37,596 bases of DNA, from positions 1 through 37,596 of the forward strand of contig CAMATD010000018.1 of NCBI GenBank assembly GCA_945860785.1. Direction: 5' to 3'. The notes under the pieces were generated by a model, which was not told the DNA's origin, did not search any database, and saw only the letters and a list, made by a program, of their open reading frames with translations. This document shows, in pieces, positions 1,902-37,084 of this stretch. The number at the start of each line of letters is the position of its first letter. Position 1 is the stretch's first letter. Source of the DNA: Variovorax sp. YR752. Lineage in GTDB: Bacteria > Pseudomonadota > Gammaproteobacteria > Burkholderiales > Burkholderiaceae_C. A program made the position numbers and the translations under genes.

Positions 1902-3068
1902 CTAACCCGAGACGGGCGGCGTGCGCCCCGCAGCCGTCGACGCCGGCACCGCCGCGGGTGTCTTGGGCGCAGGCACGGTGTTGCCGCGCTTGAGCCACAG
2001 GTAGAGCCCGCTGCCCAGCACGATGATGGTCGCGATGTCGAGCAGCGCCCAGAGGATCTGCATCGGCATGCCGCCATAGTCGCCGAAGTGCAGCGGCTGC
2101 GACACGAGCAGGCCCGTGAGGTACCAGGGCATCTTCGGCGCCGCCGTGACTTCCGCAGTCTTGGCATCGACCAGCACCGGCTGCAGCAGCTTCGAGGTGA
2201 AAGGCTCGCTGCCGTGCAGGAAGAAGGTGGTGTGGTGCGGGCTCGAGAACGACGTGCCCGGGAAGGCGATGAAGGACAGCTTCATGCCCGGTGCGCGCTG
2301 CATGGCGACGTCCATCGAGCGTTGCACCGAGGCGCGTTCGGTCACCGCGACGACCGACTCGTCCTTGTAGGGCGCGAGCAGCGTGCTGAGCTGGTCGTAC
2401 TGCCAGTACTTGATGATCAGGTCGGCCCACGTGTTGATCATGCCGGTGGAGCCCACCACGAAGAGCCACACCAGCGTGACGATGCCCAGCAGGTTGTGCA
2501 GGTCGAGCCACTTGAGGCGTGGGCGCTTCTCGCGCCGCACGGTGCCGAAGTCGAGCTTGCGCATGAAAGGCGAGTAGAGCACCACGCCGGAGACGATGGC
2601 CACCAGCAGCAGCAGGCCCATGAAGCCGAGGAAGAGCTTGCCCGCGAGCCCCGCGAAGAGATCGACGTGCAGCTTGAACATCACGTACATGAAGCCCTCG
2701 TCGAACTTCGGCTGCGCCAGCACGACGCCGGTGCGCGCGTCGACCGCCACCGACTTGAAGTCGTCGGTCGGCGCCGGCGTGGGCGTGAGCGTGACAAACC
2801 ACAGGCCGTCATCGTCATCCGGCTGCGAAGCGAACTGCACGATGCGGTCGGGGTGCTTCGCCTTGGCGATATCGAGCACCCGGTCCAAGCTGATGCGCGG
2901 CGTATCGGCGGGCATCTTCGGCGCCTCGACCTCGGTGCCCAGCAGGTGGCCGATCTCGTGATGGAAGATGAGCGGCAGCCCCGTGATGCACAGCAGCATG
3001 AACACGGTGCACACGAGGCTGCTCCACTTGTGCACCCAGGCCCAGGTCTTGATCTTTCGGCTGTTCAT
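1902..3068 (-). CDS. PepSY-associated TM helix protein
   Basis: A 388-residue inner-membrane protein. The first helix (about residues 12-34) begins with WVHKWSSL, the usual start of PepSY_TM proteins; further helices lie near 136-162, 190-215 and at the C-terminus (about 340-365). PepSY-like segments with DxxTG (VDARTGVVLAQ) fall in the periplasmic loop. Members of this family next to TonB-dependent siderophore receptors are thought to act in reduction or release of ferric-siderophore iron. The start is 29 bases after the receptor's stop codon (3097), so the two were likely co-transcribed from the Fur-like site at 5224. The gene is intact although the receptor upstream is broken. It ends in TAG. 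Confidence 0.88.
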   Translation of the reverse strand: MNSRKIKTWAWVHKWSSLVCTVFMLLCITGLPLIFHHEIGHLLGTEVEAPKMPADTPRISLDRVLDIAKAKHPDRIVQFASQPDDDDGLWFVTLTPTPAPTDDFKSVAVDARTGVVLAQPKFDEGFMYVMFKLHVDLFAGLAGKLFLGFMGLLLLVAIVSGVVLYSPFMRKLDFGTVRREKRPRLKWLDLHNLLGIVTLVWLFVVGSTGMINTWADLIIKYWQYDQLSTLLAPYKDESVVAVTERASVQRSMDVAMQRAPGMKLSFIAFPGTSFSSPHHTTFFLHGSEPFTSKLLQPVLVDAKTAEVTAAPKMPWYLTGLLVSQPLHFGDYGGMPMQILWALLDIATIIVLGSGLYLWLKRGNTVPAPKTPAAVPASTAAGRTPPVSG

Positions 3069-3096
3069 GTCGCCGTGGCTGTGATGTTGGGGGATT

Positions 3097-5199
3097 CTAG
3101 AAACGGTAGGTCGCGCTCGCGACGATGTTGCGGCGGGAGCCGTACCAGCAGTCTCCGCGCGAGAGGCAGGTGCTGAAGTACACCTTGTCCGTCACGTTGT
3201 TGATGTTGAGTGCATAGCGCTAGCGCTCGGTATCGTAAGCAAACACGAGGTCGGCCAGCGCAACGTCCGGCACGCGCGGGCCGACACCGCTTTGCATGTC
3301 CCGGAACGAACTCATCAGGCGCACGCCGGCACCGGCCGAGAAGCCGTTCACGCCGCCGATGGAGAACCGGTACTTGGCCCAGACGCTCGCCTGGTGCCTG
3401 GGCAGGCCCTCGATCAGCGCGTCGGCGTCGGTGTAGTTGTAGTGGGCGATCAGGTCGAGGTTCGGGCCGATCGAGCCCTTGGCTTCGAGCTCCACGCCCC
3501 GGGTCTTGGTCTGGCCGAGCTGCGTGAACACCTTCGGCGGCGACTCGACGATCTGGTTCTTTTCGCGCAGGTCGTACACCGCGGCGCTGAACGCCATGGC
3601 ACGCTCCCTGAAGCTCGTACTTCACGCCGACTTCCCATTGCTCGCCGCGCAGCGGCGTGAAGATGCGCCCCTCGCGCGGCGACTGCGGCGTGAACGATTC
3701 GCTGTAGCTCACGTACGGCGACCAGCCCGACGGCGAGGCGTACATCACGCCGAAGCGCTTGGTGGTCGCGCTGCTCTTTTCGTCGTCGCTGCCGACGGCG
3801 CTCGACACCGCCTTGTCGTGGCGCAGGCCCGCGACGAAGATCCAGTTGTCGAGCTTGATCTGGTCCTGCAGGTAGAAGCCGTTCTGGCGTTGACGGGTCT
3901 GCGGCCGCGCCGTGCGCTCAGGCACGTCGACATGGCCGTAGACCGGTGCGTAGACGTCGATGGTGTCGAAGGTCGTTCCGCTCCAGACGTTCTCGCGCTG
4001 GCGCGCGAAGTCCGCGCCCATGAGCAGCGTGTGCTTGAAGGCGCCGGTCTGGAAATGGCCTTCGACGTGGTTGTCGAGCGTCTGGGTGGTGTTGCGCGTC
4101 AGCGAGCTGTCGTAGTAGCGGCCCAGCACGCGCTTGAAGATCGGGTCTGCCGCCCAGCCGCCAGGGTCGCTGAACGAATCGCCGTAGTGGTAGCGGTTGT
4201 CGTTTTCGTTCTTGGCGTAGCGGAAGTTCTGGCGCACGGTCCAGCTGTCGTTGAACTTGTGCTCGAACTGCCAGCCGAAGGTCTTGCGCTCGCTGTCGTA
4301 GTAGTCGGCGCCGGGCTCGCCGATGAAGCGGCTGGTTGGAACGCGGCCGTTCAGGCTCGGCAGCAGCGTGCCCTGCCACGGAAGGAACTGCGAGCTGCTG
4401 CCGCTCTTGTCCTTCTGCCACAGCCCCTGCAGCGTCAGCAAGGTCGCTGCGTTGGGCCGCCAGGTCAGCGACGGCGCGATCACGCTGCGGTCGTCGGGCA
4501 CGTGATCCACCTGGGTGTCCGACTTGCGCTGCAGGGCGATCAGCCGGTACGAGAGCGTGCCGTCGGCATTCAGCGGACCGGTCAGGTCGGCCTAGATCTG
4601 CTTGCGGCCGAAGCTGCCGAACTGCACGCCCACTTCGCGCTGAGCCTCCTGCAGCGGCCGCTTGCTGACCATGTTGACCACACCGGCGGCCGTGCCCGCA
4701 CCGAACAGCATGCCCGACGGGCCGCGCAGCACTTCGAGCCGCTCCAGCGTGTAGGGCTCGGTGCGCGTGGTGCTGGTGTAGTAGCCGTAGGACTGCCGCA
4801 GGCCATCGAGATAGACATCGGGGTAGGCGCCCCGCGCACCCGGACCGAATCGGTCCGCGAGTCGAGGCCATAGGCATCGGAGCGCACACCGGCGGCGTAG
4901 TTGAGCGCGTCCTGCAGGTTGGTCGCGCCCTGGTCGACCATCTGGTCGCGCGTGACCACGGTGACGGACTGCGGCGTTTCGGACAGCGGTGTATCGGTCT
5001 TGGTAGCGGTCACGGCATTTCTGGCGCGATAGCCGATCACCGGCGATTTCGCGGTTTCGGCCTCCGCATTCGCGTCGACCCGTACTTCAGGCAGCGAGCC
5101 TGTCTCGGCGGATTGCGCCGTCGCCTGGTGCTGAACATAAATCGCCATGCATCCCGCCAGCACCGAAGCGGCTTTGCGCCGCGCCAACAACCTCGTCAT
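3097..5199 (-). pseudogene. TonB-dependent siderophore receptor, broken
   Basis: Assembled across frames this is one siderophore receptor of the FhuA/FpvA type, about 700 residues. It starts with MTRLLARRK at 5199 after a purine-rich GGAGCAGGA, then a signal sequence, a plug domain (SVTVVTRDQMVDQGATNLQDAL; VRVRG; LERLEVLRGPSG; GAGTAAGVVN), and beta-barrel strands ending in ATYRF with a terminal aromatic, as expected for outer-membrane proteins. It is interrupted four times: a frameshift near 4830 after VRVRGA, an in-frame TAG near 4594 in KQI-stop-ADLTG, a frameshift near 3600 after VKYELQ, and an in-frame TAG near 3220 in TER-stop-RYALN. As given it cannot make a receptor. Both TAGs are one transition from CAG or TGG. 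Confidence 0.85.
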
Positions 5200-5223
5200 T
5201 CCTGCTCCACTCCACAAACACAA

Positions 5224-6360: not shown

Positions 6361-7674
6361 TCAGAAAGTCGACAATGCCGCCTGCCAGAAAGCATGGGCC
6401 ACTTCGGGCTTGGAAATGTCGTTGTGAGCGCCGCTGAGGCCTCCGCCCTCACAGATATACGTGCCAGCATCGACGTTATAGACCGTACCCCGTTCGAAGT
6501 CGTAGATTGAACCGAGCGGCGTCATGTCCAGGTCAATGGCTTTGATTCCAGGCCCCTGCAGTCCGAAGGCTCCCACGCCACCGTAGCGCGGAAGGTCCGT
6601 GGGTGCGTCAAGTACGATCTGGCCGGCCACACCTGCAGCAAGTGGGTACAGGCGACCCACTGCTGTGTCGTGCTGCGACCGGGTAGTGACAATAGGTCCC
6701 TGGACGGCGGAAGAGTCAAGAACGCGCCGGAAGTAGCCGGGTACCCCATTGGCCAAGGCGATCTCGCTGCAGTAGGACCAGAGCGACAACGCACCCTGAA
6801 CAAGAAACAGGCTGGACACTGGCCGGGACAGCATTCGACCGCCCGGCCCGGCCAGTGTGGCGGATGCTGCGATGCAACCGAAGCTATGCCCCATCAGATG
6901 GAATCGGATACTCGCATCTGCCGCTGACAACAAGGCGTTGAGCAACTCGAACATGCCCTCCTCGCCGACTTGTCTCGCCCGGTCTTTCATTCGCCAGAAA
7001 GACAATTGAATCAGCGGCGAAAGCAGTGCATTGGTGAATGAACCGTACGTGGTAGCGTCGGATCTACCGTTGAGAAAGGCGACCTCAGGTTGGAACGGCT
7101 CGCGATCCATGTCGGGCAAGCCGCCAGCTAACAGCACATCGCGTGAGCACTCCTGCTCAAGCTCGACGTACGCTTGGTGAACCTCCTTGGGTAACTGTGG
7201 TGGGTCGGCATCGGTAAGCGCAGCCTCAAAGAGGATGCGAAGCGCGTTCCTTGCACGCGCACTGTCGCTGAGCGTTGCCGCAGCACTGGCGACAAGTTCC
7301 TCAACTTCGATCGCAGTAGTGTCGTAACTCGCGGGCGATGCTGGGTGCGCTTCGTCGCCCCAGGGAAGGCTCGGCCAGTGCAGCCCGACGATCAGCGGAT
7401 TGAAGGTTGGGCAGCGTTCGCGCGCCTGCCTCAGGTCGTCCTTACATCTTGCCATAGCGCCAACCCATTCTTGGAACTGTGCGCGTGCGGCAGGCCAGTC
7501 CCCCTTCCAGTCATGCGTCATTAAGAAGATGTCCGAAATCGATCCCGCACTCAGTGCAGCTATCAGTTCGTCGGCGGGACGCACTCCGTCTGCATCTGGT
7601 CGCGGGCGGCCCTTTTCGTCAAAGCTCACAAGGTGATAGGCAAGGTCGCTACCAGCAATTTTTTCCAGGCTCAT
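6361..7674 (-). CDS. Alpha/beta-hydrolase-fold protein, candidate effector lipase/esterase
   Basis: A 437-residue intact protein and the last gene of the four-gene operon. The nucleophile elbow GHSFG lies at residues 262-266, preceded by a strand (RFHLM) and followed by a helix (CIAASATLA). An early strand with IFLMTHDWKGDW (49-60) resembles the HGW-type oxyanion region of serine hydrolases. Late in the protein GAHNDI supplies a plausible catalytic His. No signal peptide is seen, so it is likely cytoplasmic. Its start lies inside the end of the caspase-like gene (26-base overlap), so the two are probably translationally coupled. Hydrolases of this fold serve as lipid- or ester-cleaving effectors in some defence systems; that role is inferred. 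It could also be a protease-activated zymogen. It ends in TGA. Confidence 0.8.
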   Translation of the reverse strand: MSLEKIAGSDLAYHLVSFDEKGRPRPDADGVRPADELIAALSAGSISDIFLMTHDWKGDWPAARAQFQEWVGAMARCKDDLRQARERCPTFNPLIVGLHWPSLPWGDEAHPASPASYDTTAIEVEELVASAAATLSDSARARNALRILFEAALTDADPPQLPKEVHQAYVELEQECSRDVLLAGGLPDMDREPFQPEVAFLNGRSDATTYGSFTNALLSPLIQLSFWRMKDRARQVGEEGMFELLNALLSAADASIRFHLMGHSFGCIAASATLAGPGGRMLSRPVSSLFLVQGALSLWSYCSEIALANGVPGYFRRVLDSSAVQGPIVTTRSQHDTAVGRLYPLAAGVAGQIVLDAPTDLPRYGGVGAFGLQGPGIKAIDLDMTPLGSIYDFERGTVYNVDAGTYICEGGGLSGAHNDISKPEVAHAFWQAALSTF

Positions 7675-9153
7675 GGTGGAACTCCTTGTGAAGAATCGGC
7701 GGTTTGACTGGCAGACGTACCGCGGGATCGCCTAGGATGACGAAGCTGCGCACGTCGTTGTGCCCGGTCCAAAGCATCGTGATATCAGCGTCGTGCGCGG
7801 CATTGCGCTCGCGCTCGTGGTCGGCATCGATCTCGCCGGCCAGTGCGATCGCGAGGTCGGCAAACTTCAAGCCGAAATCCTGCATGGCGTAGCCCACGGG
7901 CAGCCCCCGCATGAGCGCCTTCGATGCGCTCATGAAGACAGCAGGGTCGGGCCCCGCTTGGGGCCAATTGAACGAATAGCTCCAAGCACGCTCCACGTGC
8001 GCCACGACGGCGAGCGCCGGACCTGCATCAAGGCTCAGGAGACGCTGCGGCAGACGCGAGATGAACGCCTGGGGCGCCAATTCGCCAGGCTTGTCGCCAC
8101 CTCTCGAGTAGTCGTCCCACCGTGGAGTGCCACCCCCCAAAGCACGCGAAATTAAAGGCGATCATGCCAGAGGCACAGGCCTCCGCCGGGAGATCATCCC
8201 CCGAAAAATAAAATTCCGGCGGAATTGCACCGCGATGCCGCAACGGGCCTGGCCAGTCCTGGCAGAGCAGCGCGCCCTGATGGCGTAGCTGCAAAGGATG
8301 ACTGCTCGGAAAGCCCAGGCCGTGGCTTGCTGTGAACAGGAGGTCGGGAGTTGCCGAAAGCTTGAAAGCTTGGAGCAGGCGGCTTTTGGACGCGTCGAGG
8401 CCCGCGGCAAGTTCGACGGTCCAGTCCAGCGCAGCGTCGGCGGCCGCCGCCGAAGCAGCAGCCGTCGCCAGCGGGCGCATCAGTTGCTCCGTGCTCATTT
8501 GAGTTGCGCGATCCCCTGGATTGCTGACCGCAAAAAAGAGAGCTTTTCTTGGCCTTGGCACACAAGGAGCTTCGGATTGGCATACCCCGAGTGCATAGCG
8601 ATGTACTTCAGGGATCGAAATGAAGGGTAGTCGGCCGACTGCATAGTTAAGGCTCAGTTCATACTGGAACCGAAACGGTAATTCTTCCGGGCTTCCCACG
8701 AGGAGCAAATAAAAGGGCACCTTGTCCGGCGCCGCAGCACCAGGACTTTTCCTTCGAGGTGCGCGCGCAAGCCAGGAGCGAGCCGTGTCGTTGGGCTTGT
8801 AGCCGTCTGCTCCCGCGAAGATTTTGAAAAGCAACTGAGCCTGACTACGCCGGAGTTCCAGAAGCGGTTCGAGGGCTTCGAGGAGAGGGGCATGGTCGCA
8901 GGTGCGACGGAAACACAACGGCCCATCCCACAGATGCGAGGTCGGTGCCGACGTAACCCAAACCCAGGCCTAGAGTCGCCTCCTTTGATGTTTTGACGGC
9001 CATCATCCGGAGTTCCATCTCCGTAAGCCCTGGGCCTCGCGCCAACTGCGCCAGCTGCCCGGCCGTAAGCTCCGACGTCAGTGGCAGGCCGTCGACGGCG
9101 TTGATGCCGTTGAAGCTGATGTGCTCGGCAGGGACGTCAGCGTCAGCACTCAT
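7649..9153 (-). pseudogene. Caspase-like cysteine protease (C25/CHAT-type), frameshifted
   Basis: Assembled across three frames this is about 500 residues. The N-terminus starts with MSADADVPAEHISFNG at 9153. A core segment with PFYLLLVGSPEELPF and YAVGRLPF resembles gingipain-like C25 proteins. The clan-CD dyad motifs follow: TASHGLGFP (His) and FNFACFGG (Cys). The C-terminus ends FVILGDPAVRLP..., typical of such proteins. Frameshifts lie near 8930 (LAS to LWDGPLCF) and at 8133-8138. The second is a run of six C (six G on the coding strand) directly after the catalytic Cys codon; five G would restore CFGGGTPRW. The start overlaps the nSTAND stop as ATGA (9150-9153). Likely role: protease activated by the nSTAND partner (inference). 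Confidence 0.75.
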
Positions 9154-12100
9154 CGTAGAGCCTGCATTTTGGCCCGCGACAGCATCGCCGCGCGGTTCAG
9201 ATCGAATGAGTACAGCTTGTCAGCACCAATGACCACATTCAGAAGGGACCGGTCTGTGTACATGGTCAACACCGACGTTCCCAGCCGAGCCATCACCCCA
9301 CAGCTCTCGTGCTGGCCGGCGTCCATGCGGCAGATGACGATCTGTCCGTCCTTTTCCGCCGAAAGCGCGACTGGGCGTCCGTCGCGAAGCCCGGTCGCGA
9401 GCGTAGTGATGCCGCGCCGGTGCAGCGTGCTGACGCGGTTCTGTTTGTTCGACTTCGGATCCCAAACGATCAGCCCGTCTTCCTCAGTGCCGGCGAGAAT
9501 CGTTTGCCCGTCTTCGCTGAACTCGAGGACGTTCACGTTGCTGTTGCCAGGTTCGGAAACCGTCGAGTCGCTCGTGTTGTTCTCGGCATCGATGGTCCAG
9601 ATGTGCAATCGGCGGGAGACATTGGTTGCAGCCGCAACCTGCGAACCCGATTTATCAACTGCGAGCGCTTCAATCTCTTCATCAACGGCAGGCATGGACT
9701 TCTCCGACCAGGAGCCCGCAGTGGCAGTGAACATCGAAATGCGTTTGCCAACGGCAACGAACAAGCGATGGCCATCCGCACTGAATCTCTGGATCCCCTT
9801 AAGCTCCCCGTTCGTACATGGCTTGCTCGGTTCCGCCGGGCGCTCGCGCGACAGCGAAGCCCACTGGCGCACCTGGACCGTTCCCGTGCAATAACGCAGC
9901 GAGACCGTATCGCCCGAGGAAGAAAGAGCGACCGCCGCCACCGACTGGCCAGCAAAGAAGGGGCCGTTCACGGCATGAAATTGCCCGTCCTTGCGGTTCC
10001 AACGCAACAACTCCCGACGCTCCTTATCGCCTAACGGCGACGATAGCCTCGAGACTGGCATCCGCAGCCATCGTCGCGGGCAATGGCTGGCTGCTTGGCG
10101 ACGCTGTGTGGATGTTGTCAGCAAGGGCACTCGAGCGCGTGGAGTCAATGAGCCGAACGAGACGGCGTCCGCCCGCAGCAACGAAACTCTCCGAACCGGG
10201 CACAAAGGCGACGCTGTAGAGCTTTTCGCCCAATCCATAGACACGCCGCACATTGACCATCCTCAAGAAGACCTCGAGATTCGCGGCGTCCTGATCTAGG
10301 ACCCATCGCATCATTGCCTCGTCGGCGCCGACGGAGACCATCGCATCGCCACCGGGTGAGAAACTCATGGCGTTGACCATGCCCTGGTGGGACATCGTCT
10401 CGTGAAGGCGCTCACCAACGCGCTTCGATGCCGTCGCCAAATCCCAAGCATGAATCGCTCCGACATAGTCTCCCGCCAGAAGCCACCGTCCGTTCGGACT
10501 GGCGGCCAGCGACCGGATAGCCATTCCGGGGCCTGCACGCACGGACAGCGATCGGAAGGGGGCTCGCTTGCTGTCCGTGCCGTTTGCCAGGTCCCAGATG
10601 CCGATATCTCCGTTCCAATCTGCAGAGGCCACAAGATCTTGAGTTGAACCTGTGGTCGGTATCGCAACCACCTGGGAGATCACGGTCTTGTGAAGGCGAG
10701 CGCCGACGCTTTTCCACTCCTCCGAAGGTTGTTCGGTGCTCCATACGAGAAGACGACCGTCGTAGGTGCCCACGACGAGCTTGGAGCCGTCACGGTTGAA
10801 CGCCGCGGAATTGCTGTCACCCGCGGTTGTACCGTACTGACTGGCAGCAGCGGTGGGGCAATTGCCACTTGCACTGCACCGGTGTCCTCGACTCTCCAGA
10901 GCACGACGCGACCATTCGTGTCGGTCACGGCCATTAGCTTTCGTCCCGGATGGCGAGCGATTGCGTAGATGCTCGACATCGAAGTCAGCAGCACGCCAGC
11001 CGGCGAGTCGACAGTCCTCAAAGGCCAAGCACGCAAGCTGCCGTCCCATCCCCCGGAATAGAGTGTCTTGCCGTCATCGCTGAAGGCAAGTGCACGCACA
11101 AGATCCGTGTGGCTGCCTAGTGTCGCAAGCACGGGGGGCTGCAGGCCAAGTACCTGAGTGAAGGCAAAGTCGGATTCGAACCGGGCATCCGAGTCTCCGA
11201 CATCGACGGCGTCGATGGTCCTGATCACCGAACTGAGAGCCTCTGGACCGCGACCGTCGCGCGCCATTGAGGTGGCACGGACGAGTTCCAGCTGTCGCTG
11301 ATTGCGGGCAATTTCCTGGTATGCGGACCTGTACTGGAATACTGCTACCAATGCGATGACAAGCAATATTCCTAGGCCAGACTCGAGAACCCGCAGGCGC
11401 CGTCGGCCTTTACGAAGGGCCTGCGAAGCTCGCAGGAACTCGGTATCGACGTCCGAAAGCGACTCAGGTGAGTTTTTCTCGATATCTTCTGCCGCCTCCA
11501 GTTCCGCACCGGAGAACAGGGCGCTCAAAGGCTTGCCACCTCGGATCCATGCTTCCGACTGTATTTGCAGTCGGCTTAGATGTGTCTTTCGCCAGCGGAC
11601 GTTGCTGCTCTGGATGGGGGCGATGAGCCGATCGTGCGAGAGTTCGATCCATTCACGGTCTCCCGTGTTTTCCTGTCGCAGAAGGTGCTGGGATTCCAAG
11701 ATCGAAAGCCAGGGCCGCAGCGTCGCATAGACGGGGGAGTCCGAATCTGTGAGCACGCGCGATCGAATGCGCGTAGTTGTGATGAGGTTGTACTCGATCT
11801 AGTCCCGGATCTTGCGCTGTACCGCAACGCTCGGGGCGACCTGCGCAACGGCAGCATCGAAATAGTCGACCAACAACTCGTCAACCTCGCTCGTGGTGCC
11901 CTGCCCACGAATGTCGCCGACCGGTACTACCCGCCCTTTGCCCTCGACGATCCGTTCCCACAGGCGTCGACAAGTCACTTGCAGCAGCATTGGCTCAACA
12001 TAGCGTCCAAGGAATCGCTCTGCCTCGAGATCGCTTGACCCTGCCCCGCGCTGCACGGCTCTCAGATCGTCGACCAGCACGCGTGCCGCTTCAGGATCGA

Positions 12101-12932
12101 AGAAACCACCGGCCGGCTTCTCGACGGCTTCGCGCGCAGGTTCGGCCTCCAAGGGCAGAAGACGATAGCGAAATGACAAACCCGTGGGAAAGAAGTGTCG
12201 GAACGGCTCGAGCTCAGCAACGTGGTCTTCGCGCATCGACAGCAGAACCCAGATGTTGTCGCCGCGCCTGGTGATGCTCTCAGTGTCGGAGCTGGCCTCA
12301 TCCGTCAGAATCGTCGGGTCGAACGCCGGTAGGGACCGCGCGCCAAGCATCTCTCCGAGTTGGCGCAGGAACTCCCTTTTCTGTTTCCAGTCGGAGCCGC
12401 GCAGGGTGAAGAGTTCCTCGAACTGATCAAAAACGAAGAGATGAAGCTTGCCTGGATCGTCGGCTAGACGCTTCGCCGCGTACTGGTCCAGGGTGAGCGC
12501 CGCAAGCTCGCTGTCATGGAGACGGTCGCCGGAGTGGTCCACGGTCGATTCAAGCGTGCGCATCAGATCGAGCGCGTAGCCGTTGCATCCGTCGAGCCCG
12601 TCGCTGCAGCAGCCCAATCGGATTACGGGATGACATTGCAGCCGTGTCCGTGGCGTGCTCTCCAGCCGGGGAATCAGTCCAGCCTGGATGAGCGAGGTCT
12701 TGCCCGCGCCGGAAGGCGAGATCAACAGGGCAATCCGCTTGCTGGTCAGCAGGGAGCCGAGCTCGCGGATTTCGCGCTCGCGCCCGTAGAGCGAGTCTCC
12801 CCTCCGAAAGGGGACGGGACCAACATAGGGATTGGATGCGGACGGCTGAACCGCGCCGGTCGAAGGTGCCGGCCGGCTCGCCTGGGACAACGTGTTCGTG
12901 TCGACCGTAGGAAGTATTGACGTGGCGTTCAT
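9150..12932 (-). pseudogene. nSTAND NTPase - transmembrane - WD40 protein, interrupted
   Basis: About 1260 residues when joined. It starts MNATSILPTV at 12932 in an ATGA overlap with the CHAT-SIR2 stop. Residues 35-60 carry the nSTAND1 leader (NPYVGPVPFRRGD, LYGREREI). Walker A is SPSGAGKTS (72-80) and Walker B FVFDQFEELF (about 166-175). The STAND helical region continues to a single membrane helix (GILLVIALVAVFQY), then WD40-type repeats fill the C-terminal half (LAFSDDGKTLYSGGWDG, FNRDGSKLVVGTYDG, MSFSPGGDAMVSVGADE, LEFSEDGQTILAGTEED). Defects: an in-frame TAG at about 11799 in KIRD-stop-IEYNL, probably TGG or CAG, and frameshifts near 10845 and 10035. Family knowledge: STAND proteins are ligand-triggered ATPase switches, with the repeats as sensor. 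The membrane helix suggests an inner-membrane location. Confidence 0.85.
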
Positions 12933-15033
12933 GGGCGCGACTCGATGCGGCGAACGAGCTCTGAGATGAATTCGTCTGCCGAGCTCCATGCAATCTTGAT
13001 CTTTCCGCGTTCCTGGAAATACTTCCTCATGTATCTCGCGGCACGCTCTGGGTGCAGCAACCGCCCCTCAGTCGGGCTGATCTGCGCCGCCAAGCGTGAG
13101 CATTGGTCTCCCAACGCGTTTCCTGGCTGCTTCAGGATCCCTCAAAGCAGCCAGGAAATCCCAGTCTTCCGGCTGGAAACCGAGCAGCAGAAGACCCGAC
13201 CCGGAAAGGGCGCTCGATACCGGCGCCGGAATGCTGACGGCATTCATTGCTTCGTTCCGCGTGACCGCGATCAGGAAATCGAAGTAGTCGTCCTCCGTCA
13301 AAACCAGGCTCGTCGGATATTCGAGATTTCCGAATGCTTGGAATATCAATGGCTGCTGAATGCTGGGCACATAGTCCCTAGGAAGCTCGGGGCCGATTCG
13401 CTGCGGCGTGTCGTTGTGCATGATCCATGTACACAGATGAACAACCGGTTCTTTGCCGATGTCCCGCAGCGCATCGCGCAGCAGGTTGTCCCGGTTCGCG
13501 CTCACGAAGACGGCGATGTCGAGCTTGGCCAGCAGCAGATGAGGATCCCTCTTGTTCAGTTCCCGCTGCCTACGGCCGATGTGGCTCATGAGCGTGTTCA
13601 CCAGATCGGTAGTGAGGGGACCTGCCCAGGCTCTCGCCAATTTGCTGCAGGTCGTCCCAGTACCGCGACCGAATCTGCATCGCCAGTTCGGCGCGAAGCT
13701 CTTGGATCATGACTGCCTTGGTCTTCCGGTAGGCTCGGAACTGCGCGACCTGCGCCAGATCATCCCGATCCCGGGGGGTCAGGGGAAACTCATAGCGCTC
13801 GGCCCATTTGCGCGCAATGTCGCGCGTTGCTCCGAACATGGATTCAACGAGACCCGGCCCCAGTACTGGAACGCACTGGTGGTTGTCGATGTCCGTGATA
13901 ACCGTGTCCCAGTCCTCGAAGTATTCGTCATCGAAGACCGCCGTCTGCAGGAGTCGTCCTGTCTTGAGGCGCATGAACAGCGTCGGCATCCACCAGTCCG
14001 CTTGATCGCGGATGTCGCCGCGCGCCTTCGCCATTGCGTAATCGACCTGGCCGGATCGCGCCAGCTCCGTGAAGAAGCGCGCGAAGAACCTGCTGGCAGA
14101 CTTCATCGAGATCTTTCCCTGCATGGCGACCACGGCGCCAACGCCCGCCTCAGCCAAGCGGGGGCCGAGTGCAGAAAGTACCCCACGATCCTGGTTGCCC
14201 GCGCTTTCACACGACGCGAGTACCACTAGGCGGGGCCGTTCGATCATGTCCCTCATCCGCTCGACCAGCTCCTTGGCCTTGACTGAATGCGCGGTACCGG
14301 CGTCATTTTCCAGAAGCAGCCGAGGATCGCCTTCGACGGTGAAGGTGCCGTGGCACACGACATAGAGGATGTCAGCGTAGTGATCGCGGAGTCGGGCAAC
14401 GATGTTGTAGACCGTTGCCGGAGACTTGAGCACGTCACAGACGATGCCCAGCCCATCCCGCTCTCCTATCCGCAATGCATTGCCGAGCCTTTCGATTTCG
14501 CCTTTCGTGTCGATGGCTTCCAATCCCCACTTCGTCTTGAGGTCCGATGGGTTTGCAACAACGACCAGGACGCGAGGCTTGGTCCCGGGTTCGAACGGTT
14601 TGAAGCGAAATTCCTGCGCGGTAAGGAATCGAGAAAGCCACACGTTGTCCTGCAGTGAGAGCGGCGTCCCTGTGGCAGGGTCGCACAGCGTCTCCCAGCG
14701 CAGGTCATGCAGTTCTGGCGCACTGCTTTGGATGGCCAGTCGCAGGCGCAAGCCATCGCGCTCCCTCGAGACTGACTGAGCCCGCTGCAGCGCACCAGTC
14801 AGTGCGTTCCCAGCACCGTCACCATCGAAAAGCATCTTGGTGAGCATCCGGCCGTACTCAACCGCATCGGAGGAAACCTCGAGCAGCCTGTCGAAGTTGA
14901 AGGAGACCTCCATGGGTTCCACGAGAACGGATGCAATGTCACTCAGCGGGTCGTTGAGCCGTACCGTCACGCAGTAGCGGCCCCGGTCAATCCATTCAAG
15001 TCGAAGCTCGAGTTCGCAGTAACTTCGTGGCAT
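12929..15033 (-). pseudogene. CHAT protease - SIR2-like domain fusion, frameshifted
   Basis: About 700 residues when joined. I choose MPRSYCELEL at 15033 over an upstream Met (15075), because the upstream residues look unlike coding sequence. The N-terminal beta-rich region leads into a CHAT domain with the His motif YVVCHGTF (His about 228) and Cys motif LASCESAG (Cys about 275), then AVVAMQGKIS and the usual CHAT tail. A linker leads to a SIR2-like domain: CVPVLGPGLV (about 387-396), then in the next frame PTSLVLTEDDYFDFL and SGSGLLLLGFQPEDWDF, diagnostic of SIR2_2-type proteins. Frameshifts lie near 13633 and 13090. The third frame ends SELVRRIESRP with TGA overlapping the next ATG. It is the first gene of the operon; likely a protease coupled to NAD hydrolysis or binding (inference). 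Confidence 0.85.
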
Positions 15034-15106
15034 CGTTTCACAACCAAGTGAGGGGCAAGGATGAGCGACGAACATGCGGATTTACAGGTTCGCCAGCTTG
15101 ATGCGC

Positions 15107-15128
15107 TCACTGGGAGAGCTCCCAGTGA
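15107..15128. promoter_or_regulatory. Palindrome upstream of the CHAT-SIR2 operon
   Basis: TCACTGGGA and TCCCAGTGA form perfect 9-base arms around GAGC, 74 bases upstream of the first start codon of the operon and 113 bases after the CoiA-like gene. No T-run follows on either strand, so it is more likely an operator or RNA hairpin than a terminator. The binding protein is unknown. Confidence 0.5.
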
Positions 15129-15241
15129 TTCGTTGGCGGAGTCTAGAACCGCCTCTTGTTCATGGGAATACCATGAATCGGGGGGAAAGCATGTATTCAG
15201 CCGAAGCCATTCAACGCTCGTGATGGTTGGTCAGCAAAGCG

Positions 15242-15979
15242 CTAATAGAGAAAATTGCGCATGTTGCTTGAGAATTTCGCGGCCTCCGTGGATTGACCAG
15301 CGTTGCTTGAGCACTGGCGCCAGCTTTGCCAATTTGTCTTTTGAGCATCCACCGAAGGTGTGGCGCGCAGCCTTTGATCATCATCCGTTGGCGCGAAGAG
15401 CGAATGCTGCTCCGGCGGCTGCGGCAAACCAGGGCCAGCCCAATCCAGTACAGGTAGTGGTTGACGTCGGATTCGTGAGATGACGTGCCAGGAGCGCACC
15501 TCGATCCATGGAAATCCCGCCGCCTGAAAAGCCGCCTTCTTTTTGGCATTGACCGTGTGCGTGTGCCACACCTCGATCACCAGCAAGATCCGGTGAGTGC
15601 GCACACACCTCACGACCAAGTCGGGCACAAACCGGCTGCTTCCGATCCTGAGGGACCTCTCGGTCTCCACTGCAATCGCAGCAGTCAGGCTCACAAGACA
15701 GGCAAAAGCTCGCCAAGTCACGCCGGCATGGAACAGTCCCATCAGACCCTCGCGCGCCTTCAATTCCATTGCAAGGCGTCGAATTGCCCGCTGGTGTGGA
15801 GTGCCCTGCGGATCGCGGGGGCGGCGATTCTGCTGCGTCCGTCGAGCCCTGTGCCGTATGCGTGAATGTCTGAACACCCGCGTGCAGCACGCCAGCCCGC
15901 GCAGCCTTGGTTTCTCACTGCGCTCTACGTTGATCGTGCCCTCGGGACTATCGGCGGCGGAAATATTCCACGAATCCAA
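15242..15979 (-). CDS. CoiA-like / PD-(D/E)XK nuclease-like protein
   Basis: The C-terminal two thirds carry a restriction-nuclease-like core: FVPDLVVRC, then LLVIEVWHTHTVNAKKKAAF, then FPWIEVRSW. The PD ... IEV ... TH ... K pattern is that of competence protein CoiA-family nucleases, where the IEV(x)TH segment is the hallmark. The first 70 or so residues are Arg-rich and lack the Cys pairs usual in CoiA N-termini. The real start may therefore be the Met at 15769 (MELKAREGLM), or the N-terminus may be degraded. It lies upstream of and co-oriented with the CHAT-SIR2 operon, separated by about 200 bases, so it may or may not belong to it. Function is inferred from motifs only. Confidence 0.6.
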   Translation of the reverse strand: MDSWNISAADSPEGTINVERSEKPRLRGLACCTRVFRHSRIRHRARRTQQNRRPRDPQGTPHQRAIRRLAMELKAREGLMGLFHAGVTWRAFACLVSLTAAIAVETERSLRIGSSRFVPDLVVRCVRTHRILLVIEVWHTHTVNAKKKAAFQAAGFPWIEVRSWHVISRIRRQPLPVLDWAGPGLPQPPEQHSLFAPTDDDQRLRATPSVDAQKTNWQSWRQCSSNAGQSTEAAKFSSNMRNFLY

Positions 15980-16248
15980 TGGGGAAAATCGACAAAATTA
16001 AGATGATCACTCCTAAATAGATATCAATTTATGACAATTAATATCATTCGCAAGATCGAATTTTAAAAGAGTTCTATTGAGCGATGCGGCTCCGAGGTCC
16101 GGCGGATGGCGTGCAAATTGACATGAATTGCAATGATGGGCGAGCCATCATCGCTCCGACCGGATTGCACGTGGAGGCATTGAAGCTTAGAGTTACAACG
16201 CGTAAGGAGGCCGCTGTTTCTCACTAGAGACTAATCGATTGGTTTTCG
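15980..16248. promoter_or_regulatory. AT-rich divergent intergenic region with an inverted repeat
   Basis: The region lies between the minus-strand CoiA-like gene and the plus-strand regulator and is clearly more AT-rich than the genes to its left, suggesting promoters in both directions. ATGATGG and CCATCAT form 7-base arms with a 5-base spacer at 16133-16151, a possible operator. No gene was seen. Confidence 0.35.
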
Positions 16249-17064
16249 ATGAACCCACGCCAGTCGTCACTGAGTACTAAAAACTTCCGGCTTGTTAGCG
16301 CGCCGATGCCGGGCATGGTGGAAAAAATTAGAAGGCTCCTCAAAAACTATGCGGGACTGGAACAGCCCTTCATTGCCTGGGTGGGTGAAAACCCTGTCCA
16401 TTCGATGGAGTTGCAAGAAAACTTTGCCCTGCTTAACTGCGGGACGGTTTCGTTCGCACCGAAGGAAGATTTCTTGCTGTGTATTAAGCGCGGCGAATGG
16501 TTTGATGCAGTCGTCATTGTGGGACCGATGAAATTTCCCTGGATGATTTTCTCACGATCCGCAAATTCTACGACGTTGCGGCGTTAGCTGTTTTTGATAA
16601 TTTTCAATTAAAAAAATTACTTAGCGGCGCAGGGGAAAGGTTTTTTCGACTGAATAACGTTGACCTCGTTCATTTCATGCTGAGTCCGCCTGAACTTGCA
16701 TTGAGATTGTTGTCGCTTATTTCTGCAGCTTCCCGACTCAATAGTCCTTTTCAACAAACTTGGGGCGATTATCTATTCAAAGCAGGCCTCGACATTGTGG
16801 AACATGGACAAGTTTCTGTTCAGCTGGAGTCGAATGAGTTTGATTTGGCATTGGAATTGTTTTGCAATATTGGCCAAATTCTGCCGCGCGAGCGCTTGAT
16901 GAAATGCATGCACGGGACGGAATTGAATATTCAACATCGATCGCTCGATGTGGCTCTCGGTTGTTGAAAAAAAACTAGGTCTTTATGAAGAAAATGGGAT
17001 TTCTCCAAATGCCATATATGGCCGAGGCTACATCTTGCGAATTTCAAAGGAATTGAATGCGTAG
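16249..17064 (+). pseudogene. Winged-helix transcriptional regulator with degenerate receiver-like N-terminus
   Basis: Joined across three frames this is about 270 residues. The N-terminal half (FIAWVGENPVHSMELQENF, FDAVVIVGP, VAALAVFDNF) has the alternating pattern of a response-regulator receiver but shows no acidic pocket or phospho-acceptor Asp. The C-terminal half is an OmpR-type winged helix: TWGDYLFKAG, VQLESNEFDLALELF, ILPRERLMKCMHG, RSLDVALSVVEKKLGL, IYGRGYILRI. Frameshifts lie near 16530 and 16960. The gene sits 136 bases upstream of the YadA-like adhesin in the same direction, so it may have controlled it. It is a paralogue of the minus-strand gene at 19234-20049. The ribosome-binding site before 16249 is weak, so the start is uncertain. 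Confidence 0.7.
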
Positions 17065-17200
17065 CGAGCTTTTTATTCGGTTTGGGTGAAGTTGATCGCG
17101 ATATTTTCTTGATTTGTGGAAATTTTAAAACGTGAGTGGTTTTCGACTGGCCCAATTGCGCCCGTCGGATGATTCTAAAAAACTTCGAGGGGCGTCTGAT

Positions 17201-18565
17201 ATGAACAAGGTTTTCAAGATTATTTGGAGCTCGGCCGCCGGGGCCTGGTGTGTTGTCGGGGAGCAAACCAAGGGGCGAGGAAAGGCCAAAAGCCAAACCA
17301 GCGTCGCTCGACATGCGATGGTCGCCGTGACCATGGCGATGGGCTTGGGAAGCTGGAACCACGCGATCGATGGCATCGCCGGATCAAACGCCGGTGTCAA
17401 CGCGGCAAACGCAAACGCTTTATCAACTTTTGGTTCGGGCGGTGGCGTGGTGTCCTCGTCCTTCAATGGCGTTGCACTTGCCGGAGCGTCCGACTGCGGA
17501 ATCATTGGGAATATGAACGCGGCTGCCGTGTACGGAACTGGTGCGTCGTTCACCGGCGGGTTCTATGGGTTCGGCACGCAAGCCTCCGCCGTATCGTGGA
17601 GCGCCGCGCAAAACGCTGGAACCGGTCAGGCCGGCGGGATCAACAACTACGCGGGCGCCCAGACCTTGGGTAACGTCAATGTCACGGCAGCCAATATCGC
17701 CAGTGCGGCGGCCAATGTCAGCGCATTCGGTATGAACTCGTTCGCAACGGGCTGCGGCTCGCAAGCAAACGGATTGGGCGCGACGGCCATAGGTTGGAAT
17801 GCCTCTGCGCCCGGTGCCGGCGGAATTGCGATGGGGGTGAATGCCAATGCAGCGGCTCAGGGTGGGATTGCTCTGGGAACACAGGCCAGAGCGGTGGCCG
17901 TGGACTCCCTGGCGCTGGGGACGCTCGCAAATTCTGCGGCGACGCGTGCGATTGCAATCGGTAGCCAAGCGAATGCGCAATATGCAGACAGTGTGGCGCT
18001 CGGTGCCAACTCCACGATGGGAGCCGCCGCACCAACTGGCACGGGTTACATCACCGGCACCGCGGCACCGGCGGCGGAAGTGTCCGTCGGAAGTTCTACA
18101 AACTTGCGCCGAATCACCAACGTTGCCGACGGGGCGGCGGCCCAGGACGTGGCAACGATTTCCCAACTGAGCACGAGCAACACCAGCCTCTCCACCTCTG
18201 TGGCGAGTCTCTCGACTTCCACCTCAACCGGGTTAAGCACGGCGACGAGCGGCATCTCCAGCTTGTCCACGGGCCTGAGCACCACCAACAGCAGTGTTGG
18301 TAGCCTGTCGACCTCCACGTCGAGCGGCTTGAGCACGGCAACAAGCAGCATCTCCAGCTTGTCGACGGGGTTGAAATCAAAAGAGCTGCGACCCGACTCC
18401 GAGGTGGCCTGGTACAACCTCGGGCTGGCGTTGAGCCAACTTGAGCGCACCGGCGAGGCGGAGCTCGCATACCGCCAAGTCCTCAGCATTCGCCCATCTT
18501 TTGCGGAAGCCAATATAAATCTTGCCAATCTTTTGAGTCGCAGTCGCGGCAGCGCTTCTCTCTGA
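17201..18565 (+). CDS. YadA-like trimeric autotransporter adhesin N-terminus fused to a TPR fragment
   Basis: It starts at ATG 17201 (MNKVFKIIW) after GAGGGG, not at the longer frame's start (17132). Residues 1-30 are an extended signal peptide region (ESPR: AAGAWCVVGEQTKGRGK), followed by a hydrophobic signal core. The head has YadA-type repeats (GATAIGWNA, GGIAMGVNA, GGIALGTQA, DSLALGTLA, RAIAIGSQA, DSVALGANS). The neck motif is LRRITNVADG with DVATISQL, and then a Ser/Thr/Leu stalk. After STGL at 18373 the sequence switches to unrelated TPR residues (VAWYNLGLALSQLERTGEAE, YRQVLSIRPSFAEANINLAN). No membrane-anchor beta-barrel is present, so surface display should fail. The junction looks like a deletion joining two genes. 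Confidence 0.8.
   Translation: MNKVFKIIWSSAAGAWCVVGEQTKGRGKAKSQTSVARHAMVAVTMAMGLGSWNHAIDGIAGSNAGVNAANANALSTFGSGGGVVSSSFNGVALAGASDCGIIGNMNAAAVYGTGASFTGGFYGFGTQASAVSWSAAQNAGTGQAGGINNYAGAQTLGNVNVTAANIASAAANVSAFGMNSFATGCGSQANGLGATAIGWNASAPGAGGIAMGVNANAAAQGGIALGTQARAVAVDSLALGTLANSAATRAIAIGSQANAQYADSVALGANSTMGAAAPTGTGYITGTAAPAAEVSVGSSTNLRRITNVADGAAAQDVATISQLSTSNTSLSTSVASLSTSTSTGLSTATSGISSLSTGLSTTNSSVGSLSTSTSSGLSTATSSISSLSTGLKSKELRPDSEVAWYNLGLALSQLERTGEAELAYRQVLSIRPSFAEANINLANLLSRSRGSASL
18200..18373 (+). repeat. 96-bp stalk repeat, 1.8 copies
   Basis: Copy 1 at 18200-18295 encodes a 32-residue unit starting VASLSTSTSTGLSTAT. Copy 2 at 18296-18373 starts VGSLSTSTSSGLSTAT and is cut after 26 residues by the TPR fusion. 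Such repeats are recombination-prone and may explain the deletion. Confidence 0.75.
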
Positions 18566-24489: not shown

Positions 24490-25443
24490 TTGAGCTGGCA
24501 AATGCCGATGTGCACTCACCCAACAGAATACTGGTTAAAAAAAACAGTGCGTTGTTACAATACACCCAGCGAGTCAGAAATCGGCAAAGAAACAAGCATC
24601 GAGTGGACGCACCACACCTTCAACCCTTGGTGGGGTTGCGTGCGAGTGTCCGCCGCTTGCGACCATTGCTACGCGGAAACCTGGGCTAGGCGCTTGGGCG
24701 AGGATGTTTGGGGTGCGAAGTCCGAGCGCCGCTTCTTCGGTGATGCCCACTGGAAAGAACCCCTGAAGTGGGATCGCGAAGCGAAGGCTCAAAAGATCCG
24801 GTGGCGCGTGTTCTGTGCGTCCATGGCCGATGTCTTCGAAAATCGCAAGGATCTGGTCCCCCATCGGCAACGCCTCCTCGAACTCATTGCAGCAACACCA
24901 AATCTGGATTGGCTGCTCCTCACCAAGCGCATCCACCTAGTTCGCAAGCAGTTACCGAAAGGGTACGAACTTCCATCAAACGTTTGGCTTGGTGCGACCG
25001 TCGAAAACCAGGCGGCCGCAGGCAAGCGTTTGAAATACCTTTTGGAATTCACCACCCCATCGGTCCGTTTCCTCTCTTGCGAGCCGTTGCTCGGTCCTCT
25101 AGATCTGCGTGAGTGGCTTCAAGTCGGCACAACAGGCACGCGAGTGGACTGGGTCATCGCTGGCGGCGAATCCGGTCCAGGTTCGCGCCCGATGGAGCCC
25201 CAGTGGCCAGAAGAGCTACGTGAGCAATGCAACGCCGCCGGCGTCGCGTTTCACTTCAAACAATGGGGCCACTGGGCTCCGGTCGAGCAGGCTGCAGACG
25301 CTCTGACAGCGCGAACCGCGATCCATATCATTCGGCGCGATGGTTCGGAGGTCAAGCTGGCTGCAGTCGGAAAAGGGAAGGCCGGACGCTCACTGGGCGG
25401 CCGATACTGGGACCAGTTTCCAAACACTGGAAAACAGGTCTAG
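24490..25443 (+). CDS. Three-Cys-motif protein, phage Gp37/Gp68 family (DUF5131)
   Basis: The conserved N-terminus IEWTHHTFNPWWGC followed by C-x6-C-x2-C (GCVRVSAACDHCYAE) identifies the Gp37/Gp68 family. Further family motifs are VFCASMADVFE, LDWLLLTKR, VWLGATVENQ, LSCEPLLGPLDL, DWVIAGGESGPGSRPM and FHFKQWG. The cysteine cluster and overall layout resemble radical-SAM-type iron-sulphur proteins, though the reaction is unknown to me. The start is unclear: the frame opens at TTG 24490, but homologous sequence begins only near 24595, and the GTG at 24547 or Mets at 24502/24508 are alternatives. It is followed 36 bases later by tcmP, its standard partner, so this is a recognised gene pair. Confidence 0.85.
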   Translation: MSWQMPMCTHPTEYWLKKTVRCYNTPSESEIGKETSIEWTHHTFNPWWGCVRVSAACDHCYAETWARRLGEDVWGAKSERRFFGDAHWKEPLKWDREAKAQKIRWRVFCASMADVFENRKDLVPHRQRLLELIAATPNLDWLLLTKRIHLVRKQLPKGYELPSNVWLGATVENQAAAGKRLKYLLEFTTPSVRFLSCEPLLGPLDLREWLQVGTTGTRVDWVIAGGESGPGSRPMEPQWPEELREQCNAAGVAFHFKQWGHWAPVEQAADALTARTAIHIIRRDGSEVKLAAVGKGKAGRSLGGRYWDQFPNTGKQV

Positions 25444-25479
25444 CACCTATCTACCCACGCACTGCGGAAAGGCTCGCTC

Positions 25480-31991: not shown

Positions 31992-32080
31992 TCCGGACCT
32001 CCCACTCCACTCCTATCCAGCGGCCACGTCGGGTGCGAGCCCATGTCGACCCCGAAAGCGCGGAGCGGTATCTCGGCGGT
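31988..32080 (-). pseudogene. C-terminal remnant of a metallophosphoesterase, duplicate of the 32101 gene's region
   Basis: On the minus strand the frame reads TAEIPLRAFGVDMGSHPTWP, then LDRSGVGGPE and TGA. It matches TAAAPFRAFGVDMGSHLAWP ... ETGLGGPP in the gene at 32101-33009, with the DNA copies at about 31999-32080 and 32260-32341. It ends in a GTGA overlap with the HAD gene, so a full-length copy once ran straight into that HAD gene. Only about 30 residues survive. Confidence 0.75.
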
Positions 32081-32100
32081 CCTCATACGACACCGCCGTG

Positions 32101-33009: not shown

Positions 33010-33110
33010 TTCACATGTACGCCGACGTGGCGAAGAAAAGTGACGATGAAGCTTGAGCTGCGCGCCTTTCTTGAACCAAGAACAGTTCGCCAGCGAATCC
33101 GAAGTGCGGC

Positions 33111-35153: not shown

Positions 35154-35161
35154 GAGGGCAT

Positions 35162-37075: not shown

Positions 37076-37084
37076 TTTTATAGA

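What the first reader, a model, noticed from the sequence alone, without database searches (positions are those of the whole stretch)
6361..15033. Four-gene operon: CHAT-SIR2, nSTAND-TM-WD40, caspase-like protease, alpha/beta hydrolase
Seen: four minus-strand genes joined by two ATGA overlaps (12929-12932, 9150-9153) and one 26-base overlap (7649-7674), with CHAT His/Cys, SIR2, Walker A/B, WD40, clan-CD His/Cys and GHSFG motifs. Known: STAND ATPases, CHAT/caspase-like proteases and SIR2 NADases are parts of prokaryotic conflict systems. Inferred: a ligand-sensing, membrane-anchored NTPase triggers two protease steps, ending in NAD loss and lipid or ester hydrolysis. I do not know of a described system with exactly this four-part makeup.
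Basis: partly seen in the sequence, partly recalled or inferred. Interest (0 to 1): 0.92.

Follow-up and report, generated by a model that had tools for sequence, protein, structure and literature searches.

The report
Sensor-protease-hydrolase operon in bacteria
A soil bacterium carries a damaged copy of a four-gene operon whose relatives recur in distant bacteria and look like a two-part alarm: a membrane sensor with one protease, and a separately mobile pair of a second protease and a lipase-like enzyme, possibly used to kill or stall a cell under attack.

Summary
The four-gene block at 6361-15033 is real, with both ATGA junctions and the 26-base overlap as described. In this assembly three of the four genes are interrupted; only the hydrolase is open throughout. 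The genome is Variovorax-like. The set is not a chance cluster: CHAT-SIR2, nSTAND1, C25 (gingipain-fold) protease and alpha/beta hydrolase lie together in 21 of 80 hydrolase loci, from six phyla, in several gene orders. Hydrolase and C25 protease co-evolve (rho 0.81; 0.88 within the four-gene set), as do CHAT, SIR2 and nSTAND (0.80-0.95); across the blocks 0.44-0.68. The pair also sits beside CHAT-nSTAND fusions, TPR-CHAT proteins and a kinase: a portable executioner pair. Best reading: a STAND-sensed protease relay that unleashes a lipase-like hydrolase. No named system turned up in the searches made, but Kaur 2020 noted caspase-hydrolase pairs in MoxR-vWA systems, and Canu is a proven parallel. 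No defence-island enrichment was seen. A new variant of a known kind.

The parts
12929..15033 (-). Gene A: CHAT protease domain fused to a degenerate SIR2_2 domain; read in three frames here (13570-15033; 13068-13640; 12932-13141)
   Evidence: PF12770 2.8e-29 and PF13289 4.3e-13; CHAT His and Cys kept; frame changes located against L027
9150..12932 (-). Gene B: nSTAND1 NTPase, transmembrane helix, WD40 beta-propeller; one in-frame stop and two frame changes here
   Evidence: PF20703 6.2e-25; PF00400 1e-10, 1.5e-14 and 0.0016 in three pieces; 19-residue hydrophobic stretch, mean KD 2.24; lesions
7649..9153 (-). Gene C: C25 (gingipain-fold) cysteine protease, catalytic His and Cys kept; two frame changes here
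   Evidence: tblastn of the pieces to loci whose gene is annotated 'C25 family cysteine peptidase'; model of relative L027 C best matches RgpB and Kgp; His and Cys in 58 of 58 relatives' rows, both kept in the window piece
6361..7674 (-). Gene D: alpha/beta hydrolase, lipase/esterase-like, intact, 437 aa; Ser264-Asp336-His417
   Evidence: Ser 80/80, Asp 80/80, His 78/80 (2 gaps) of the 80 rows counted out of 83; AlphaFold2 model pLDDT 87.5; top PDB folds are DDHD domains, an esterase and lipases, none at E <= 0.001 (best 2e-3)
12929..12932 (-). ATGA overlap of A stop and B start
   Evidence: read directly
9150..9153 (-). ATGA overlap of B stop and C start
   Evidence: read directly
7649..7674 (-). 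26-base overlap of C end and D start
   Evidence: read directly

Best explanation
A two-module conflict (cell-suicide or growth-arrest) system. Sensor module: nSTAND-TM-WD40 protein (B), membrane-anchored, binds a trigger through its WD40 part, uses NTP to assemble, and activates its partner CHAT protease (A), whose SIR2 domain is no longer a canonical NADase and most likely acts as a nucleotide-binding or adaptor part. Executioner module: a gingipain-fold C25 protease (C) and a lipase-like alpha/beta hydrolase (D). CHAT activity switches on C, and C (or, where C is missing, a CHAT partner) cuts or releases D, which then attacks a lipid or ester and stops the cell. Shown here: gene content and recurrence, kept catalytic residues of CHAT, C and D, degenerate SIR2, linkage, two co-evolving blocks, partner exchange. 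Inferred: activation order, cleavage of D, lipid substrate, anti-invader purpose. The copy in the window is probably not functional as assembled.
For: 21 of 80 loci hold CHAT-SIR2, nSTAND, C and D together, in 6 phyla. Of 47 loci with at least 6 kb on both sides of D, 35 have C, 43 have CHAT, 45 have one or both. Reciprocal: 6 of 198 relatives' genomes have C; 5 of the 6 are among the 8 of 198 with D, and in those five C and D lie on one contig within a few kb. Co-evolution: D-C rho 0.81, D-CHAT 0.36, C-CHAT 0.37 in 44 loci; in 16 four-gene loci D-C 0.88, CHAT-SIR2 0.95, CHAT-nSTAND 0.80, SIR2-nSTAND 0.80, across the blocks 0.44-0.68. Fusions: CHAT-nSTAND in 14 and D-CHAT in at least 7 of 80 (L059 is fused too). 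Catalytic residues: CHAT His and Cys 22 of 22 rows, C His and Cys 58 of 58 rows, D triad. Partner exchange: CHAT with weak HEAT matches, TPR-CHAT, TPR-S-CHAT, kinase-D-C, D-X-CHAT-C. Established parallel: protease-activated pro-nucleases in Hachiman, AVAST and Canu (PMC12799240, abstract and passages).
Against: No experiment. No defence-island enrichment: 43 PADLOC families matched among 129 neighbour ORFs against 59 among 129 control ORFs (families, not genes, are counted); the 25 commonest Pfam families of the neighbours that were shown, of 125, are mostly metabolism, transport and regulation. No hit in phage records or viral contigs. The low CHAT correlations may partly be noise: CHAT is the most diverged of the three (median distance 3.82 against 1.65 and 2.23), and in the 16 four-gene loci shared splits within the sensor block (6-8 of 13) are no more than across the blocks (5-8 of 13). 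An active-site-blocking insertion in D could not be measured; pLDDT under 50 is seen at 107-118, 209-212 and 354-356. A DR..FDP motif near residue 190 is a possible cut site, but its Arg is in 37 of 58 C-bearing and 5 of 22 C-less rows (at least three of those five on short or cut contigs), and W or N in many cyanobacteria. Two actinobacterial B proteins have no room for WD40. D's fold match is weak.
Confidence: 0.5

Rival explanations
1. Parallel effectors, no relay: CHAT, C25 and hydrolase are each switched on by the STAND assembly and act on separate cellular targets; C does not cut D.
For: Each enzyme keeps its own catalytic residues. In 15 of 80 loci D lies near or is fused to CHAT without a C hit.
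Against: D and C co-evolve far more tightly than either does with CHAT and are neighbours in 20 of 21 four-gene loci (my reading), which fits a direct pair. D without C has another clan-CD protease as partner, often by fusion.
Confidence: 0.25
2. NAD-depleting system: the SIR2 domain is the lethal NADase and the hydrolase is accessory.
For: SIR2_2 profile match; PADLOC ThsA model 1e-5; the Asn is kept in the window and 5 of 22 relatives' rows.
Against: The catalytic His is missing in 22 of 22 relatives' rows and in the window; phmmer aligns the window's FG to the HG of ThsA. My SIR2 HMM finds no such domain in the cyanobacterial CHAT-nSTAND fusion loci that keep D and C.
Confidence: 0.07
3. 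A regulated stress-response or housekeeping proteolysis module, not a conflict system; lethality and phage are irrelevant.
For: No defence-gene enrichment around the loci; no phage or viral-contig copies.
Against: Very patchy spread over distant phyla (8 of 198 relatives), different versions within one genus, plasmid-borne relatives (26 plasmid records), and an architecture typical of conflict systems (PMC7159879 and PMC8195603 passages).
Confidence: 0.18

Closest known systems
Canu and the nuclease-protease pairs of Hachiman/AVAST (Science 2025, PMC12799240; abstract and passages seen)
   Same: Protease plus partner enzyme inherited as a pair and shared by unrelated sensors; caspase-family protease in Canu; the authors think further proteolytically activated enzyme classes possible and name protease co-evolution as a hallmark.
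   Different: Their effector is an MBL-fold nuclease with a trypsin-like or MALT1-like protease; here an alpha/beta hydrolase with a gingipain-fold C25 protease. Activation is proven there, not here.
VMAP MoxR-vWA ternary conflict systems (Kaur 2020, PMC7159879; passages seen)
   Different: Core there is MoxR ATPase + vWA + VMAP; here nSTAND-WD40 + CHAT-SIR2, with no MoxR or vWA. Whether the hydrolases are homologous was not tested.
STAND/NLR-like proteins with caspase-type partners, and the apoptosome (Apaf-1 with WD40; passage)
   Same: STAND NTPase with WD40 sensor coupled to a clan-CD protease.
   Different: Four separate genes with a second protease of gingipain fold and a lipase-like enzyme.
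ThsA-type SIR2 NADases
   Same: SIR2_2 family.
   Different: Catalytic His absent in the 22 relatives' rows and the window.
Gingipains RgpB/Kgp (peptidase family C25)
   Same: Predicted fold (TM about 0.47-0.49), His-Cys dyad, annotated name of relatives.
   Different: Member of what looks like an intracellular operon rather than a secreted protease (my reading; no signal-peptide tool was run).

Membership tests
CHAT protease (PF12770) | Profile match over the cut-off and His-Cys dyad | tested here: met
   102.9 bits against 24; His and Cys in 22 of 22 relatives' rows and in the window
CHAT protease (PF12770) | Proteolytic activity | not testable with these tools
   needs biochemistry
SIR2 NADase (ThsA type) | SIR2-like profile | tested here: met
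   PF13289 50 bits against 24.5
SIR2 NADase (ThsA type) | Catalytic His (HG motif) | tested here: not met
   F 19, L 2, N 1 of 22 rows; F in the window; alignment to ThsA; that this His is catalytic is recalled knowledge
nSTAND1 NTPase | Profile, Walker A and Walker B | tested here: met
   89.1 bits against 27.1; Walker A pattern in 23 of 23 relatives' rows, my Walker B pattern in 16 of 23
Peptidase family C25 (gingipain) | Fold and His-Cys dyad | tested here: met
   RgpB E 4.3e-7, Kgp 1.4e-6; dyad in 58 of 58 rows
Peptidase family C25 (gingipain) | Sequence-profile match of the window pieces | tested here: not met
   no Pfam, PADLOC or NCBIfam hit for the three pieces
Alpha/beta hydrolase, lipase-like | Fold with nucleophile elbow and Ser-Asp-His triad | tested here: met
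   GHSFG; Ser264, Asp336, His417; top PDB hits are DDHD domains, an esterase, lipases, but none at E <= 0.001; the diverged Gemmobacter member matches DUF900 at 1.6e-4
Protease-activated effector pair (Canu-like) | Protease and effector co-evolve and move together | tested here: met
Protease-activated effector pair (Canu-like) | Active-site-blocking insertion in the effector | tested here: inconclusive
   only stretches of low pLDDT seen; coordinates not available
Protease-activated effector pair (Canu-like) | MBL-fold nuclease effector | tested here: not met
   effector is an alpha/beta hydrolase
VMAP MoxR-vWA ternary system | MoxR and vWA genes in the operon | tested here: not met
   absent among the four operon genes and the 29 proteins of relatives' loci scanned
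Named antiphage system in PADLOC 2.0 | System-specific model match | tested here: not met
   only partial matches to CHAT-, ThsA- and WD40-type models of other systems

The most novel reading that the evidence does not exclude
A portable 'hydrolase-C25' executioner pair: a lipase-like proenzyme and the gingipain-fold protease that unlocks it, exchanged as a unit among unrelated bacterial alarm systems (CHAT-SIR2/nSTAND-WD40, CHAT-nSTAND fusions, CHAT-HEAT-like, TPR-CHAT, a kinase), with the SIR2 domain reused as a non-catalytic nucleotide sensor. It would be the lipid-attacking counterpart of the nuclease-protease pairs.
Probability: 0.4. Interest if true: 0.82.

Novelty: new variant of a known kind. 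Interest (0 to 1): 0.63.

Why it matters
Proteolytic activation of a killer enzyme is well shown for bacterial pro-nucleases; PMC12799240 (passages) thinks further enzyme classes possible and gives hallmarks. This pair meets the co-evolution hallmark with a different enzyme class, occurs in many phyla, and has open-frame copies in named strains, so the idea becomes directly testable. It also warns against reading every SIR2 domain in a conflict operon as a NADase.

Tried and rejected
Considered and set aside: (1) NADase effector, because the catalytic His is absent. (2) Chance clustering, because of recurrence and reciprocal linkage. (3) Defence island: 129 of 135 neighbour ORFs of 18 four-gene loci (one of the 18 gave no ORF) against 129 of 251 ORFs of 16 control regions gave no enrichment; the tool counts families and lists 25 of them, the controls come from relatives of the window and not from the same species, so the test is coarse. 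(4) Phage-borne cargo: no hit in phage records; 74 pattern hits in viral contigs, none confirmed. (5) A universal Arg cut site in D: pattern not consistent. (6) Solved-structure searches by sequence with the hydrolase and C25 profiles gave nothing meaningful. (7) Promoters and terminators: none and nine found, neither above the shuffles by much.

Rows and limits: L020 and L067, and L021 and L102, are the same loci fetched twice; they stand in the residue counts but were cut to one each for (L020, L021 dropped). For one search L020, L022 and the near-copies L060, L062, L079 were dropped, and L030 and L101 fell out for want of a full-length C. One search counts 80 of 83 D rows: 3 rows with only a partial C were in neither class. 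The 80 loci are the best of 141 relatives found with the hydrolase as bait, so counts lean towards close relatives of D. Domains in the loci were called with my own iterated HMMs, not with Pfam; cut contigs make absences unreliable, hence the separate count for 47 loci with long flanks. One search used the single window protein and a 40-row profile, so the two tallies differ in sensitivity. Gene orders in the 21 four-gene loci were read by me. Trees were quick ones. The HEAT matches of L096, L099 and L102 lie under Pfam's cut-off.
Full report
1. What is in the window. The block 6361-15033 on the minus strand holds four genes in the order A (CHAT-SIR2), B (nSTAND1-TM-WD40), C (clan-CD protease), D (alpha/beta hydrolase). 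Pfam gives CHAT, SIR2_2, nSTAND1 and WD40 with good scores; the pieces of C and D match no curated family. Only D is an open gene. A, B and C are each interrupted: frame changes in A near 13642-13622 and 13155-13150; in B an in-frame stop at 11799-11801, a frame change at 10851-10812 and, by the ORF list, another between about 10250 and 10078; in C frame changes at 8911-8852 and near 8137. One copy each of rpoB and gyrA in the same genome is whole, but the assembly has 445 contigs and is 86.8% complete. I cannot say whether the operon has decayed or the contig is poor. The genome shares its genus code with genomes whose matched contigs have the same lengths as contigs of records titled Variovorax (G029 and Variovorax sp. 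OV700, 106290 bases; G083 and Variovorax sp. JS1663, 33824 bases).

2. The set recurs. The intact hydrolase was used as bait. It has relatives on plasmids of Planktothrix, Nostoc and Sinorhizobium beside genes annotated as C25 family cysteine peptidase, CHAT domain protein and, in part, WD40 or ATP-binding protein. A scan of one genome per species found 141 relatives; the best 80 were fetched. With HMMs iterated in the box, 57 of 80 loci have C, 61 have CHAT, and 21 have CHAT-SIR2, nSTAND, C and D together (my sums of its rows for 57 and 61). The 21 lie in Pseudomonadota, Actinomycetota, Gemmatimonadota, Verrucomicrobiota, Acidobacteriota and Cyanobacteriota. Of 47 loci with at least 6 kb on both sides of D, 35 have C, 43 CHAT, 45 one or both. 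From the other side, C is found in 6 of 198 relatives' genomes, and 5 of these 6 are among the 8 of 198 with D. CHAT alone makes 86 matches in 61 genomes of the genus (my sum).

3. Two modules. As I read, the 21 four-gene loci keep A beside B in 21 and C beside D in 20, but the pairs move against each other: A-B-C-D as in the window in 5 (L027, L081, L094, L100, L104), A-B-D-C in 10 (L056, L060, L062, L067, L074, L077, L079, L088, L095, L098), D-A-B-C in 1 (L030), pairs on opposite strands in 5 (L052, L071, L082, L092, L101). Tree distances agree for D and C (rho 0.81; 28 of 41 splits shared) but much less for D and CHAT (0.36; 17) or C and CHAT (0.37; 15) in 44 loci (all three correlations reach the smallest p that 199 shuffles allow). 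CHAT is more diverged and so noisier (median distance 3.82 against 1.65 and 2.23). In 16 four-gene loci the pattern is D-C 0.88, CHAT-SIR2 0.95, CHAT-nSTAND 0.80, SIR2-nSTAND 0.80, across the blocks 0.44-0.68; here CHAT, SIR2 and nSTAND agree with each other in spite of their divergence. Split sharing within the sensor block is no higher (6-8 of 13) than across the blocks (5-8 of 13), so the case for that block rests on distances; D-C shares 11 of 13. On the D tree the CHAT-SIR2 label needs 8 changes, at least 5 forced by well-supported branches (quick tree).

4. Partner exchange. The D-C pair also sits with CHAT-nSTAND fusions in cyanobacteria and Gemmata (14 of 80), CHAT proteins with weak HEAT matches (L096, L099, L102; under Pfam's cut-off), TPR-CHAT proteins (L058), TPR-S-CHAT with nSTAND-WD40 (L042), and, in diverged form, a kinase-D-C array (L025) and a D-X-CHAT-C operon (L026, L017). 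Where no C is seen, D is fused to a CHAT domain (at least 7 of 80; L059 is an eighth) or lies near one (8 of 80, L059 included), among them a TIR/SEFIR-NNH1-CHAT protein (L093). 8 of 80 loci show neither C nor CHAT, 6 of them with short flanks. So D nearly always has a clan-CD protease as partner.

5. Active sites. CHAT His and Cys are kept in 22 of 22 relatives' rows (21 distinct loci); C His and Cys in 58 of 58 rows; D Ser and Asp in 80 of 80 and His in 78 of 80 (2 gaps); the window keeps all of these. The SIR2 domain is different: the position of the catalytic His is F in 19, L in 2, N in 1 of 22 rows, and F in the window; the Asn is kept in 5 of 22 and the window. phmmer aligns this place to the HG motif of ThsA (a weak match, E 0.15); that this His is catalytic is established knowledge, recalled. 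An ordinary NADase step is therefore unlikely. Walker A is found in 23 of 23 nSTAND rows; a hydrophobic helix follows the NTPase domain in 21 of 23, the exceptions being a fragment (L030) and L071.

6. Folds. The C model (relative L027; pLDDT 89.5) matches gingipains RgpB and Kgp first (E 4.3e-7 to 4.3e-6, TM about 0.47-0.49). The D model (window; pLDDT 87.5) matches DDHD domains, an esterase and lipases, but only weakly (E 2e-3 at best). Its secondary structure suggests a large insertion at about 100-215 between the strand at 93-99 and the nucleophile strand at 257-263, with pLDDT under 50 at 107-118 and 209-212; a gating role is conceivable and untested. A DR..FDP motif near residue 190 is common but not universal.

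7. Mechanism. Most likely: trigger binds WD40 of the membrane-anchored B; B assembles with NTP; CHAT of A is activated (CHAT-nSTAND fusions suggest that the two act together); CHAT activates C; C unleashes D; D attacks a lipid or ester. Only anatomy, linkage and co-evolution are shown; the order of steps, the substrate and the purpose are inferred. Against a defence role stand the absence of defence-gene enrichment around the loci (43 PADLOC families matched among 129 neighbour ORFs, 59 among 129 controls) and the lack of hits in phage and viral collections.

8. What is known. Kaur 2020 (PMC7159879, passages) reports that in VMAP systems a caspase domain always has a neighbouring alpha/beta-hydrolase gene. 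The Science 2025 paper (PMC12799240, abstract and passages) proves protease-activated nucleases and thinks other enzyme classes possible. PMC8195603 and PMC10907252 (passages) describe related STAND systems. No paper in the listings seen names the present four-part set (searches; the library holds open-licence papers only, and five of the ten listings were capped). I therefore file it as a new variant of a known kind, with the portable hydrolase-C25 pair as the part that could be new.

Noticed in passing
window 34356-37594: TniQ, TniB and a Mu-transposase C-terminal gene: the right end of the window holds Tn7/Tn5053-type transposition genes, so part of the window may be a mobile island.
   Followed up: no
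window 24490-27602: DUF5131 gene next to two genes that match the phage-defence candidate families PDC-M30/PDC-M41, the second only weakly.
   Followed up: no
window 17132-18565: A long ORF that reads as an adhesin-like repeat protein and then turns into TPR-like sequence; possibly a chimeric assembly junction (translation, my reading).
   Followed up: no
window 3065-5223: TonB-dependent receptor-like gene that also seems to change frame (my reading), like genes A-C.
   Followed up: no
L071 (Gemmatimonas sp.), 11339-17363: Four C25-like hits in one four-gene-type locus: expansion of the protease.
   Followed up: no
L094 and L104 (Kitasatospora, Kibdelosporangium): nSTAND protein ends 71-76 residues after the NTPase domain, with a hydrophobic helix but no room for WD40.
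   Followed up: partly
L025 7329-11360: Protein-kinase gene directly upstream of diverged hydrolase and C25 genes in a genome of the window's genus.
   Followed up: partly
L026 1359-7025 and L017 13971-19378: Compact D-X-CHAT-C operon; X is an unknown protein of 493 and 450 aa shared by both (23% identity, 5e-12), without any Pfam match at E 0.01.
   Followed up: partly
window 30697-33641: Two metallophosphoesterase genes, each next to a small gene (31539-31991 and 33111-33641) that reads alike in both; apparent tandem duplication (my reading).
   Followed up: no
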